Assembly: GCA_937959375.1 (NCBI GenBank) | Contig: CALGLS010000016.1 | Span: 1-36,283, forward strand | Length of the DNA: 36,283 nt | DNA from: an uncultured Saprospiraceae bacterium | GTDB lineage: Bacteria; Bacteroidota; Bacteroidia; Chitinophagales; Saprospiraceae | Direction: 5' to 3' | In this document: positions 16,663-21,006 of the stretch, piece by piece | Layout: every line of letters starts with the position of its first letter | How positions within the stretch are numbered: position 1 is the stretch's first letter | The notes under the pieces: model-generated | Told to the model about the DNA's origin: nothing | Seen by the model: only the letters and a program-made list of their open reading frames with translations | Database searches by the model: none | Position numbers and translations under genes: made by a program

Positions 16663-17313
16663 CTAGTCTTGTAATTTTGAACCAAAAGCTAAATCACCTG
16701 CATCTCCCAAACCAGGAACGATGTAAGATTTAGCCGTCAATTCTTCGTCAACAGCACCTAACCAAAATTTAGCTTCGGGATAGAGACGTTTAAGGTAATT
16801 ATAACCATAGGTAGAACAAACTACTGAGGCAATATGCAACTGCTTAGGTGTACCATAATCGGCTAAGGCTTTTATGCCTACATCCATTGACGCTCCAGTA
16901 GCCAACATCGGGTCTACGATTATCAAATGGCAGTCATCTAGGTTAGGACAAGAGATATAATCAAGCTTGATTTCGAAGGTACCATCCTTGTGATGTTTCC
17001 GAAAGGCAGATAAAAAAGCATTTTGAGACTTATCAAAATAGTTGAGAAAACCTTGATGAAATGGTAAACCAGCTCGCATGATGGTCGCTAATACAACTCG
17101 TTCAGCAGGTAGATCGATCTTGGCAACTCCCATAGGAGTCTCGACATCATTGGACTTATAAATCAGTGTTTTACTGATTTCATAGGCAAGGATTTCTCCT
17201 ATTCGTTCCAGATTTCGTCTGAAACGCATGCTATCTTTCTGTACTGTGCTATCTCTCAGCTCTGCGAGAAAAGTATTTGCAAGTGAATTCCGATCGTCGA
17301 GTATAAAGGCCAT
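16663..17313 (-). CDS. upp: Uracil phosphoribosyltransferase
   Basis: 216 aa; PRPP-binding 'LIIVDPMLATGASMD', 'PGLGDAGD' C-terminal signature. Confidence 0.92.
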   Translation of the reverse strand: MAFILDDRNSLANTFLAELRDSTVQKDSMRFRRNLERIGEILAYEISKTLIYKSNDVETPMGVAKIDLPAERVVLATIMRAGLPFHQGFLNYFDKSQNAFLSAFRKHHKDGTFEIKLDYISCPNLDDCHLIIVDPMLATGASMDVGIKALADYGTPKQLHIASVVCSTYGYNYLKRLYPEAKFWLGAVDEELTAKSYIVPGLGDAGDLAFGSKLQD

Positions 17314-17450: not shown

Positions 17451-18776
17451 TTATGCCTTCTTCTCGCTTGCTGCGGCTGCGAATGAAGTGTACATGCTCT
17501 GCCATCCATCCCAGCCCATCAGAGAAGAGAATGAACTATTGTGCCAAATGCTAATAAGCGTTCCGTCAACCGCTTGCACTTCATCGATGATTCTTTGACA
17601 GGATTCAAGAGCCGCTGAAGGACTAAGTCCCAGATAGTTTTTAAGTGTTACGTCCATGATTTGAAATGGAAAAACTATTAATGCTGTTTCTTTCTCATTT
17701 TCTAGGTCATACCATTGGAAAGGGTGGCTAGTGGATGCTCGAAAGCCAAGTGACTCAGCGTAGCCCATTGTATAATCAGCATTGATACCAAGCGCCAAAA
17801 GACGTTGATAAGTATCTGGGAAGGATAATTTTAAAAAATGTTGTCGACTCGTTTTTATAGGTTGACCGCTAATAGACCGGAGGTCCTTTATTTCTTTTTC
17901 CAATTGATTGGCATCTGTATTAGAGGCGTAAGAGGGGTGAATCCCAATTTGGCTTTTGGCACAAAGCCTATGGACTAGATCGTGCATGGCTGGATGTTCT
18001 GGCGCTGTATTTTTGTCATAAGTTCCATAAGCTCCGAATAAGAAGAAATAAATAGCTTTCAGCTCATGTTTTTCATGCAAATGATCTAAAAAATCGAACT
18101 TAAAATATGGGTCGGGTTCACTTTTATTGAGGACTGTAAGTCTTGTCGAGAAATCACCAAATTGGCCTTTCAGCAAATCCTTCATTGCTCCTCCGAAAGT
18201 TCTCCAAGGTTTTTTATGTAAATAAGCCCAACCAAAGTCTATGTCAATGGTAGGTATAAATGCATAAGCTTTTGATTTAACTGGAGTAAATTGGAACCGA
18301 TTTACCAATTGGCCGTTAATGTACATTAGCCACTGATCGACAAGTGGCTGCTCTAAAAAACCATATTTGAAAGCCTGACTTTGCCTGGCCGTAAAACGTC
18401 CGTGATTGTCGGGGTCGAAAGGTAAATATTCCTCATACCTACTGAGTAGATAAAAAGCCATTGATAAAAAATCGAAGGAAAGATCTGCACCAGTATTATC
18501 AATTCCAAAAAGTGTAGGTAATTGATCTGCTGAGCTAAAATTGATTTTTTGAGGGCGAATATCATTTTCCAATATGAAATCATGTAAAGGAATAATGAAG
18601 GATTTTACCTTGGCATTTTGAGAATTGCCGTAGTGAATTCGAATTTTATCAGAGGCCGCAAAATGTTTGTAATCACAGGTAAACTCAATAGAATAGGCCA
18701 ATACCTTTGAAAAAAGGTGTTTGACAATATATTCAATGCGTGGATTAAGCTTTTTTGTATAAAAAATCAAATTCAT
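17451..18776 (-). CDS. Polysaccharide deacetylase family protein
   Basis: 441 aa; 'FIPTIDIDFGWAY', 'IGIHPSYASN', 'SIWHNSSFS' motifs of the Bacteroidota polysaccharide-deacetylase-like family. Confidence 0.75.
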   Translation of the reverse strand: MNLIFYTKKLNPRIEYIVKHLFSKVLAYSIEFTCDYKHFAASDKIRIHYGNSQNAKVKSFIIPLHDFILENDIRPQKINFSSADQLPTLFGIDNTGADLSFDFLSMAFYLLSRYEEYLPFDPDNHGRFTARQSQAFKYGFLEQPLVDQWLMYINGQLVNRFQFTPVKSKAYAFIPTIDIDFGWAYLHKKPWRTFGGAMKDLLKGQFGDFSTRLTVLNKSEPDPYFKFDFLDHLHEKHELKAIYFFLFGAYGTYDKNTAPEHPAMHDLVHRLCAKSQIGIHPSYASNTDANQLEKEIKDLRSISGQPIKTSRQHFLKLSFPDTYQRLLALGINADYTMGYAESLGFRASTSHPFQWYDLENEKETALIVFPFQIMDVTLKNYLGLSPSAALESCQRIIDEVQAVDGTLISIWHNSSFSSLMGWDGWQSMYTSFAAAASEKKA

Positions 18777-18954: not shown

Positions 18955-19311
18955 ATGTCAAAAAAAGAGAACAACAACGCTACCATGATGCCAGGTGAAA
19001 TAGGAATGATTAGAGATATTCTAATGGGTCCTCAAATGGTAAAGATCGAAGAGCGGTTCGAAGCTTTAAATGCTAAATTTCAAGAATTAGAGGAAAGTTT
19101 GGATAGAAAAAGCCAAGACCTAGAGCAAAAAGCAACGCAGCTTAGCTCACTCGAAAAAGAGGTAGATACTCAATTTTCTGCTATCGAAAAGAAATTGGAA
19201 AGCAGTGTCGAAAAACTCGAAAAAATGATTGAGAAAGTAGACACTACCAGTAAAGCTAAACTCGGTAAAATGCTAAGCGATATTGGTCAGAAACTAATGG
19301 ACAATAGATAG
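18955..19311 (+). CDS. Small coiled-coil protein, first gene of the GTPase cassette
   Basis: 118 aa; heptad-rich 'ERFEALNAKFQELEESLDRKSQDLEQKATQLSSLEKEV'; N-terminal 'IGMIRDILMGPQMVKIEERF' motif; 17 bp upstream of the next gene. Confidence 0.72.
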   Translation: MSKKENNNATMMPGEIGMIRDILMGPQMVKIEERFEALNAKFQELEESLDRKSQDLEQKATQLSSLEKEVDTQFSAIEKKLESSVEKLEKMIEKVDTTSKAKLGKMLSDIGQKLMDNR

Positions 19312-19328
19312 TCGGCGATTTCCTGCTA

Positions 19329-20204
19329 ATGAACAAGATCCAACATAGCGCAGAGGAGGAACTAATGCTCAAAAGGTTACGCGAGATAATTCTTCGTGAT
19401 GACCGGGCAGAGCTTTCGAATTTGCAAAATTTGATCAATGATCCTAAGCAACTTTCAAGTAAGGTCTCTCCTATTATTGATGAGCACATCGATTTTCTAA
19501 AACAGAATTTTCCTGTAGAATTTGAAAAAGCAGTAGACAAACTGGTAGAAAAAAAGATCGTAGATTCTCAAGATCAAATCGTCAATCTAATATATCCCAA
19601 ATTAGATGTGATGATCAAGAAGTATGTCACTTCTATGTTCCAAAAACTAAAAGATTCGATTGATGAACGTCTTGATGGTGTAAAAACGACTTTCAGTTTT
19701 AATGGTATTAAAGCTCGAGTTACCTCCATTTTTACTGGTGTCAAACAAAGTGACATCATACTAACAGATATCGGTGCGGTGGTCATTGAAGAAATATTTA
19801 TTATCCAGCAAGACTCTGGACTGTTGGTTGCTGCCGCTTCTAAATCAAAGCACCTAGATCAGGATGTAATAGCTGGCATGCTTACTGCAATTAAGTCATT
19901 TGTTGAAGATGCGTTTGACAAGGGAAGTGAAGATTTGGAAATGATTCGATATGAAAATTCTAAAATCTTTCTACTTAACTTTCAATCTTATTATTTCGCA
20001 GTTTCCCTTACAGGCTCCTTATCCGAGATAGAAAAAGAGAAATTGTCAGAAGAACTGATTACATTTGCAAAAGAAGATCTCCCATTCAATATGAATGACA
20101 TTACAGAGGCGTCATTTAAAGAGACTTCAGATAAACTAGACCAAAGCTTCTTTGCAGAAGCTCGCACTAAAGAAAATCAAAAAATCGACTCCCAAAATGA
20201 TTAG
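19329..20204 (+). CDS. Putative roadblock/longin-like regulatory protein, second gene of the GTPase cassette
   Basis: 291 aa; helical N-half, then 'VIEEIFIIQQDSGLLVAAASKSKHLDQDVIAGMLTAIKSFVEDAF...LEMIRYENSKIFLLNFQSYYFAVSLTG', a pattern resembling the N-terminal part of OmpA-annotated proteins of other phyla (from memory); no OmpA domain here. Confidence 0.65.
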   Translation: MNKIQHSAEEELMLKRLREIILRDDRAELSNLQNLINDPKQLSSKVSPIIDEHIDFLKQNFPVEFEKAVDKLVEKKIVDSQDQIVNLIYPKLDVMIKKYVTSMFQKLKDSIDERLDGVKTTFSFNGIKARVTSIFTGVKQSDIILTDIGAVVIEEIFIIQQDSGLLVAAASKSKHLDQDVIAGMLTAIKSFVEDAFDKGSEDLEMIRYENSKIFLLNFQSYYFAVSLTGSLSEIEKEKLSEELITFAKEDLPFNMNDITEASFKETSDKLDQSFFAEARTKENQKIDSQND

Positions 20205-20679
20205 TAAAAAAGTAATATTAACAGGAAGTTTTGGCGTAGGAAAAACTTCACTTTTCAATAAATTCATACACGACAAGTTCAGTGACAAGTACTTAACGAC
20301 TATTGGAGTAAAGGTGAATAAGAAAAGCGTAACAGTAGATGGCCAGGAGCTCTCTCTCTTACTTTGGGATATCGCAGGTGAAGTATCTCAAGAAAAGGTC
20401 CCCACCTCTTTTTACCTTGGAGCAAGTGCCATTATCTTTGTTTTTGATCTTACTCGTCCTTCTACTTTCAATCAAATTGCATCTAACATTAACTACCTAA
20501 AAGGTATTTCTGGTGATGCGATTATAAAAGTTGTTGGAAACAAGCATGACCTTGTAGATGCCGAAGACATTGCTCAAATTAAAGAAACAATTGAAACACC
20601 TTGGGATATTTTGACTTCTGCCAAAACTGGTGCGAATGTAGAGGAACTATTCCACGGACTTGCTAAAGAACTTTTATAA
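20197..20679 (+). CDS. Ras/Rab-like small GTPase
   Basis: ATG at 20197 (ORF track start 20152 is upstream in the same frame); G1 GSFGVGKTS, G2 TTIGV, G3 WDIAG, G4 NKHD, G5 TSAKTG; overlaps the preceding CDS by 8 bp (ATGATTAG). Confidence 0.92.
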   Translation: MISKKVILTGSFGVGKTSLFNKFIHDKFSDKYLTTIGVKVNKKSVTVDGQELSLLLWDIAGEVSQEKVPTSFYLGASAIIFVFDLTRPSTFNQIASNINYLKGISGDAIIKVVGNKHDLVDAEDIAQIKETIETPWDILTSAKTGANVEELFHGLAKELL

Positions 20680-20700: not shown

Positions 20701-20745
20701 AAAACTCCTGCAAGGCATCAAATGTATGTTTTGCAGGAGTTTTTA
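20701..20745 (+). terminator. Rho-independent terminator after the GTPase cassette
   Basis: AAAACTCCTGCAA ... TTGCAGGAGTTTTT. Confidence 0.8.
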
Positions 20746-21006
20746 TTTAGGCTAAGCCTTATCAAGTATTGTCCCTATTTTTTGAAAGAAATATCTGCTT
20801 TTTTCGATCATATCGAAATTATTCCGTCCTCCTACCTACTTTTTGACGGTTTTTATTTGTTATCACATGCATCTTGGGTTTAATTTTTGCGTTAAAATGC
20901 ATATATTAAGACTTTATCCTTGGTATTTTCATTGGACTTTAAACAATGTACAACAATCGAGAATAAATTGCTGTTATAAGATTTTCAAGAACTATCACCA
21001 GAGATT

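What the first reader, a model, noticed from the sequence alone, without database searches (positions are those of the whole stretch)
18955..20679. Three-gene small-GTPase cassette: coiled-coil protein, roadblock/longin-like candidate, Ras/Rab-like GTPase
Seen: three co-directional ORFs with a 17-bp gap then an 8-bp ATGATTAG overlap, followed by one strong terminator, so they form one transcription unit. The third has a full Ras-type G1-G5 set. Established: prokaryotic Ras-like GTPases (MglA, Rup types) often work with roadblock/longin-fold partners such as MglB. Inference: the C-terminal half of the second protein ('EEIFIIQQDSGLLVAAAS...DVIAGMLTAIKSFVEDAF...') looks like such a partner, and its N-terminal half resembles the first part of OmpA-annotated proteins of other phyla as I recall them. 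Here the OmpA domain is absent and a short coiled-coil gene precedes it. This would be a self-contained GTPase/regulator/scaffold module of unknown function, possibly for envelope or polarity signalling.
Basis: partly seen in the sequence, partly recalled or inferred. Interest (0 to 1): 0.72.

Follow-up and report, generated by a model that had tools for sequence, protein, structure and literature searches.

The report
Bacterial Rab-like GTPase with longin partner
Three adjacent bacterial genes encode a Rab-like molecular switch, a partner with the fold that controls Rab switches in our own cells, and a coiled-coil protein; the set is a stripped-down version of a signalling system catalogued in 2014 but, as far as found here, never studied in the laboratory.

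Summary
In detail: three co-directional genes (17-bp gap, 8-bp overlap) end at a real terminator. Across 82 loci, gene 2 and the GTPase are adjacent on one strand in all 82, and the coiled-coil gene precedes them in 78; the other four lie at contig ends. Gene 2's C-terminal half, a "domain of unknown function" in 2014, is predicted to have the longin/roadblock fold (best PDB matches TRAPP, Inturned-Fuzzy, MglB, Mon1-Ccz1). Its most conserved segment is the helix that binds GTPase switches in those complexes. The GTPase is Rab-like, but its G3 glutamine is glutamate (81/82). "Self-contained" is wrong: most relatives have a fourth gene directly downstream (a sensor-like domain, alone or with a histidine-kinase remnant); this genome carries it on another contig as a 121-aa protein. 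Contact and a GEF role are inferred; a fused fold prediction was inconclusive (pTM 0.52). New variant of a known kind, interesting because it pairs a Rab-like GTPase with a longin-type partner in one bacterial operon.

The parts
18955..19311 (+). Gene 1: coiled-coil protein, 118 aa, with a conserved N-terminal motif (GxIxxIRxILMGxQM)
   Evidence: present upstream of gene 2 in 78 of 82 loci; dN/dS 0.039
19329..20204 (+). Gene 2: 291-aa longin/roadblock-domain protein with helical N-terminal arm; no OmpA domain and no convincing TM helix
   Evidence: AlphaFold2 mean pLDDT 82.5; Foldseek PDB; Pfam longin families among weak hits of relatives; hydropathy
19335..19763 (+). Gene 2 residues 3-145: helical arm, shared with the N-terminal part of OmpA-annotated homologues
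19782..20195 (+). Gene 2 residues 152-289: strands and helices in the order bb-a-bbb-a-a, the longin order
   Evidence: topology compared with PMC10933270
19860..19913 (+). Gene 2 residues 178-195 (QDVIAGMLTAIKSFVEDA): predicted GTPase-docking helix, most conserved segment
   Evidence: Mean column entropy 0.91 bits against 1.06-2.85 for other segments; equivalent helices bind the GTPase in Mon1-Ccz1/TRAPP and MglB
20197..20679 (+). Gene 3: Rab-like small GTPase, 160 aa
   Evidence: Pfam Ras 7.4e-32; best PDB matches Rab2, Sec4, Rab14
20197..20204 (+). 8-bp overlap of gene 2 stop and gene 3 start (ATGATTAG)
20224..20250 (+). G1 / P-loop GSFGVGKTS
20365..20382 (+). G3 WDIAGE; Glu62 in place of the catalytic Gln
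   Evidence: WDxAGE in 81 of 82 loci
20701..20747 (+). Intrinsic terminator hairpin and T-run
   Evidence: z -5.2; conserved in sister species L001, z -7.6

Best explanation
The three genes are the core of a Group 1 Rup-type GTPase system that has lost its OmpA/membrane half and, in this genus, has its sensor component at another locus. Gene 2 most likely forms a longin dimer whose two conserved helices (residues 178-195) make a platform that grips the switch regions of the Rab-like GTPase. It probably promotes nucleotide exchange (GEF) and holds the GTPase at a site set by the helical arm and the coiled-coil gene 1 protein. Because the GTPase has Glu in place of the catalytic Gln, its GTP state should be long-lived or should need a residue supplied in trans. 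The detached 121-aa sensor-like protein, or its kinase-linked forms in relatives, is the likely upstream or downstream partner. Shown: gene structure, conservation, purifying selection, GTPase family. Predicted by computation: the longin/roadblock fold. Inferred: dimer, contact, GEF role, scaffold and sensor roles.
For: Order and strand conserved in 82/82 loci for genes 2-3, and 78/82 for gene 1 with the four exceptions at contig ends. AlphaFold2 with 90 homologues gives longin topology. PDB fold matches are dominated by GTPase regulators: TRAPP 1.2e-4, Fuzzy-Inturned 1.7e-4, MglB in complex with MglA 2.3e-4, Mon1-Ccz1-Ypt7 6.3e-4, Ragulator 6.3e-4. Independent sequence signal: Intu_longin_1 in 9 and Fuz_longin_1 in 7 of 90 homologues, best E 9e-4, below Pfam cut-offs. 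The most conserved segment is the helix that docks on GTPases in Mon1-Ccz1/TRAPP (PMC5216073) and MglB (PMC6876712). The neighbourhood matches the published Group 1 Rup description, including loss of the G3 Gln. A detached sensor gene is present in this genome and in its genus-mate with a conserved flank.
Against: The read-through gene 2-GTPase fold prediction gave pTM 0.52 and no error matrix, so contact is not shown. Whole-model pTM for gene 2 alone is 0.55, although the longin half is confident by pLDDT. No Pfam longin or roadblock match passes its cut-off. Longin/roadblock domains can also act as GAPs, scaffolds or effectors, so GEF is one of several options. In OmpA-type relatives the GTPase is sometimes on the opposite strand or not found nearby.
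Confidence: 0.6

Rival explanations
1. Gene 2 is a GAP (MglB-like) rather than a GEF: the longin/roadblock dimer reshapes the switches and helps supply the catalysis that the missing Gln cannot.
For: MglB is among the best fold matches. MglB activates MglA without inserting a residue (PMC6876712). The G3 Gln is replaced by Glu in 81 of 82 loci, so a GAP in trans is plausible, as Wuichet & Sogaard-Andersen proposed.
Against: No Robl_LC7 match in gene 2 or in the held assembly (assembly about 72% complete). Weak sequence hits and the two C-terminal helices favour longin over roadblock. MglB is reported to have both GAP and GEF activity (PMC11016934 abstract), so fold alone cannot separate the roles.
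Confidence: 0.2
2. The longin domain is a structural or effector platform (Ragulator-like) that holds the GTPase without changing its nucleotide cycle; the switch is driven by intrinsic rates or by the sensor protein.
For: Ragulator subunits are among the fold matches. The long helical arm and the coiled-coil gene suggest assembly. The OmpA-linked form looks like a membrane or wall tether.
Against: The strongest fold matches are subunits of exchange or activating factors; no direct test.
Confidence: 0.15
3. The module is a decaying relic in this lineage, after loss of the OmpA half, the kinase and the linked sensor gene.
For: Reduction of the output gene across relatives.
Against: dN/dS 0.03-0.04 for all three genes against the sister species; intact GTPase motifs; a conserved terminator; the sensor gene is retained elsewhere in both genus members.
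Confidence: 0.04

Closest known systems
Group 1 Rup systems (Wuichet & Sogaard-Andersen 2014, PMC4316618)
   Same: Ras/Rab-like single-domain GTPase without the G3 Gln; neighbouring coiled-coil gene; neighbouring conserved-domain gene; a fourth signalling gene in most relatives
   Different: No OmpA or TM segment; fourth gene not linked in this genus and usually reduced to a lone sensor-like domain or a kinase remnant in the family; the 'unknown' domain is now predicted to be longin/roadblock-type
MglA-MglB (Myxococcus, Thermus)
   Same: Bacterial Ras-like GTPase with a longin/roadblock-fold partner; MglB is a top fold match
   Different: Gene 2 has no Robl_LC7 match, has an extra helical arm and longin-order helices; the GTPase's best sequence matches are Rabs
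Eukaryotic Rabs with longin-based exchange factors (TRAPP-Ypt1/Rab1, Mon1-Ccz1-Ypt7, Inturned-Fuzzy-Rab23)
   Same: Rab-like GTPase and longin fold; conserved helix equivalent to the docking helix
   Different: Eukaryotic factors are heteromeric; here there is one longin gene, presumably a homodimer; sequence similarity of the longin part is only marginal
Actinobacterial conservons (Cvn)
   Same: Operon of GTPase, MglB-type partner and a kinase-like protein
   Different: MglA-family GTPase and roadblock partner; different accessory genes (PMC4316618, PMC13343842)
Asgard archaeal Rab-like GTPases with roadblock/longin proteins (PMC10933270)
   Same: Same pairing of folds in a prokaryote
   Different: There the genes are generally not in operons; here they are strictly linked

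Membership tests
Group 1 Rup GTPase system | Small GTPase with Ras-superfamily G1-G5 motifs | tested here: met
Group 1 Rup GTPase system | G3 lacks the conserved glutamine | tested here: met
   WDIAGE; WDxAGE in 81 of 82 loci; definition
Group 1 Rup GTPase system | Neighbouring cytoplasmic coiled-coil gene | tested here: met
Group 1 Rup GTPase system | Neighbouring conserved-domain protein, 'often' followed by TM and OmpA | tested here: met
   Domain shared with OmpA-annotated homologues; the optional TM/OmpA part is absent
Group 1 Rup GTPase system | Fourth neighbouring output-module gene (cyclase/phosphodiesterase or histidine kinase) | tested here: not met
   No such gene or remnant next to the window unit; a lone sensor-like protein is encoded on another contig. 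In relatives a fourth gene is linked in at least 65 of 82 loci. Because of this the window unit is filed as a variant, not a full member
Group 1 Rup GTPase system | Places with Group 1 in the published Rup tree | not tested
   Published Group 1 sequences were not aligned; a Nostoc homologue with the same gene order was found
Longin domain | bb-a-bbb-a-a fold with five-stranded sheet | tested here: met
   Predicted model only; fold matches
Longin domain | Match to a curated longin family above cut-off | tested here: not met
   Best member E 9e-4 Fuz_longin_1; window E 0.03 Intu_longin_1, 15 bits against cut-off 23.7
Roadblock/LC7 (MglB) | Robl_LC7 profile match | tested here: not met
   None in gene 2 or the own assembly
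Roadblock or longin GTPase regulator | Direct binding to the GTPase switches | tested here: inconclusive
   Fused read-through prediction pTM 0.52
Roadblock or longin GTPase regulator | GEF or GAP activity | not testable with these tools
   Needs biochemistry

The most novel reading that the evidence does not exclude
Bacteria carry an operon-encoded Rab-like GTPase with a cognate longin-type exchange factor, working like TRAPP or Mon1-Ccz1 on Rabs, and in Saprospiraceae this switch has been uncoupled from its ancestral kinase output and OmpA tether so that it runs as a soluble GTPase-longin-coiled-coil module.
Probability: 0.35. Interest if true: 0.8.

Novelty: new variant of a known kind. Interest (0 to 1): 0.6.

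Why it matters
The 2014 paper stated that no Rup GTPase had been characterized experimentally, and no open-access paper found here names a fold for their partner domain. [quoted passage not shown] A small bacterial set with both parts in one operon makes the age and ancestral activity of the Rab-longin pairing directly testable. The repeated reduction of the fourth gene also shows that the GTPase-longin core persists without an active linked kinase.

Tried and rejected
(1) Roadblock membership by sequence: Robl_LC7 not found in the gene or the held assembly. (2) PDB sequence search with gene 2 or its 90-member profile: only chance matches. (3) A shared ancestry of gene 1 and the N-terminus of gene 2, suggested by similar 'LRxILL/IRxILMG' motifs: profile comparison gave probability 1%, so not claimed. 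(4) Read-through of in-frame gene 2-stop-GTPase stretches as a stand-in for a complex: inconclusive, pTM 0.52, and its fold search lists only Rab-type matches at the top. (5) Calling the fourth protein a PAS domain: no Pfam or PDB support; described only as sensor-like. (6) Equating it with the N-terminal region of output proteins in Nostoc or Mesorhizobium: no profile match. (7) Phylum hit L056: lies in an ORF that looks like alanyl-tRNA synthetase, treated as false.

Full report
WHAT IS THERE. The window is a contig of a Saprospiraceae genome (G000; the closest relative found is titled 'uncultured Saprospiraceae bacterium', 92% identical in gene 2). The three genes lie at 18955-19311, 19329-20204 and 20197-20679 on +, with a 17-bp gap and an 8-bp overlap. 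A hairpin at about 20701-20747 with a T-run follows (z -5.2; -7.6 in the sister species). Against the sister species all three genes show dN/dS of 0.03-0.04, so they are real, constrained proteins.

THE GTPASE. Gene 3 is a Ras-family GTPase (Pfam Ras 7.4e-32) whose best solved relatives are Rab2, Sec4 and Rab14. G1, G2, G4 and G5 are canonical. G3 reads WDIAGE: the catalytic glutamine is glutamate, and WDxAGE holds in 81 of 82 loci.

CONSERVATION OF THE UNIT. Gene 2 homologues occur in 104 of 348 sampled genomes of the same family (67 of 243 good-quality ones), and in 15 of 396 genomes across the phylum at E <= 0.001, one of them a likely false hit. In the 82 loci examined (the window plus 81 others) gene 2 and the GTPase are always adjacent on the same strand (median gap 23 nt). 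Gene 1 precedes in 78; in the other four the contig ends there. In other Bacteroidota the gene 2 homologue is a ~600-aa protein that carries an OmpA domain in the one tested (L070). There the coiled-coil gene is usually upstream, but the GTPase is on the same strand, on the opposite strand, or not found nearby. A Mesorhizobium plasmid has a hypothetical (coiled-coil-type) protein, an OmpA family protein, a 'Rab family GTPase' and a cyclase in a row; a Nostoc plasmid has the same order with a histidine kinase.

THE KNOWN SYSTEM.

GENE 2 IS LONGIN/ROADBLOCK-LIKE. AlphaFold2 on the window protein with 89 homologues gave mean pLDDT 82.5. A helical arm covers residues 3-145, then residues 152-289 run bb-a-bbb-a-a. 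That is the longin order, with the extra helix at the C-terminus rather than the N-terminus as in roadblock (PMC10933270). The PDB fold search is dominated by GTPase regulators: TRAPP (1.2e-4), Fuzzy-Inturned, MglB bound to MglA, Mon1-Ccz1 with Ypt7, and Ragulator. TM-scores normalised by target are about 0.5-0.7 for most of these, so superfamily-level similarity is firm and the longin/roadblock distinction is softer. Sequence gives an independent hint: 9 of 90 homologues weakly match Intu_longin_1 and 7 match Fuz_longin_1 (best 9e-4), all below curated cut-offs. The most conserved segment is helix 178-195 (entropy 0.91 bits). In Mon1-Ccz1 and TRAPP the GTPase binds a surface formed by the equivalent helices of both longin domains (PMC5216073), and both MglB monomers use helix 2 on the MglA switches (PMC6876712). 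The mechanism proposed here, a longin dimer gripping the switches and promoting exchange, is inference from this. The direct attempt, a read-through prediction of gene 2 plus GTPase from loci where they happen to be in frame, was inconclusive (pTM 0.52, no error matrix).

THE FOURTH COMPONENT. In relatives a further gene follows the GTPase, detected by profile in 65 of 82 loci and by eye in three divergent ones. Thirty-one encode a lone sensor-like domain (about 70-160 aa), thirty-two a 330-395-aa protein, and two a full histidine kinase; L040 and L041 also have kinase domains or kinase-like sequence. In the 31 aligned mid-length proteins the motif around the phospho-acceptor histidine is not kept and the nucleotide-binding motifs are degraded (by inspection); two of them tested have no Pfam kinase match. 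On a tree of the two core proteins this trait needs at least 14 changes (quick method). The window groups with a genus whose loci also lack the linked gene (support 97). In the window's genome the component is a 121-aa ORF on contig C6 (E 7.6e-24). A genus-mate has it with a conserved upstream gene, while the neighbouring genus has no detectable copy. So the cassette is not self-contained, and the GTPase-longin core outlasts its kinase.

VERDICT. The unit is real, conserved and of a known kind, with a new and testable assignment for its partner protein. I rate Group 1 Rup-type identity about 0.9, the longin/roadblock fold about 0.9, direct contact about 0.8, and GEF as the main activity about 0.45; these are judgements, not computed values.

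Noticed in passing
L063, L064, L024-L038, L115-L169 (fourth gene): The histidine kinase after the sensor-like domain appears degraded in many Saprospiraceae (acceptor His and ATP-binding boxes not kept) and is lost entirely in about half.
   Followed up: partly
G000 contig C6 (L109) 2460-2825: Detached 121-aa sensor-like protein, the likely fourth component, next to a thioredoxin-like gene that is conserved in the genus-mate.
   Followed up: partly
G467 contig C317, 7298-8035 (L170, L172, L174): Two sensor-like genes in divergent orientation, away from the triplet.
   Followed up: no
L030 6898-7902 and L142 3228-4253: Gene 2 homologues of one genus have an apparent tandem duplication in the helical arm.
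   Followed up: no
window 17451-18776 and 16663-17313: The divergent upstream gene and a uracil phosphoribosyltransferase-like gene are conserved neighbours in 14 and 9 related loci, suggesting vertical inheritance of the locus.
   Followed up: no
G000:C157:7020-7487 and G000:C557:9122-9655: Two further Ras-profile matches in the genome, inside 962-aa and 406-aa open frames.
   Followed up: no
L072, L073, L074, L076: In some OmpA-type loci the GTPase gene is on the opposite strand from the OmpA-type gene, so linkage is looser there.
   Followed up: no
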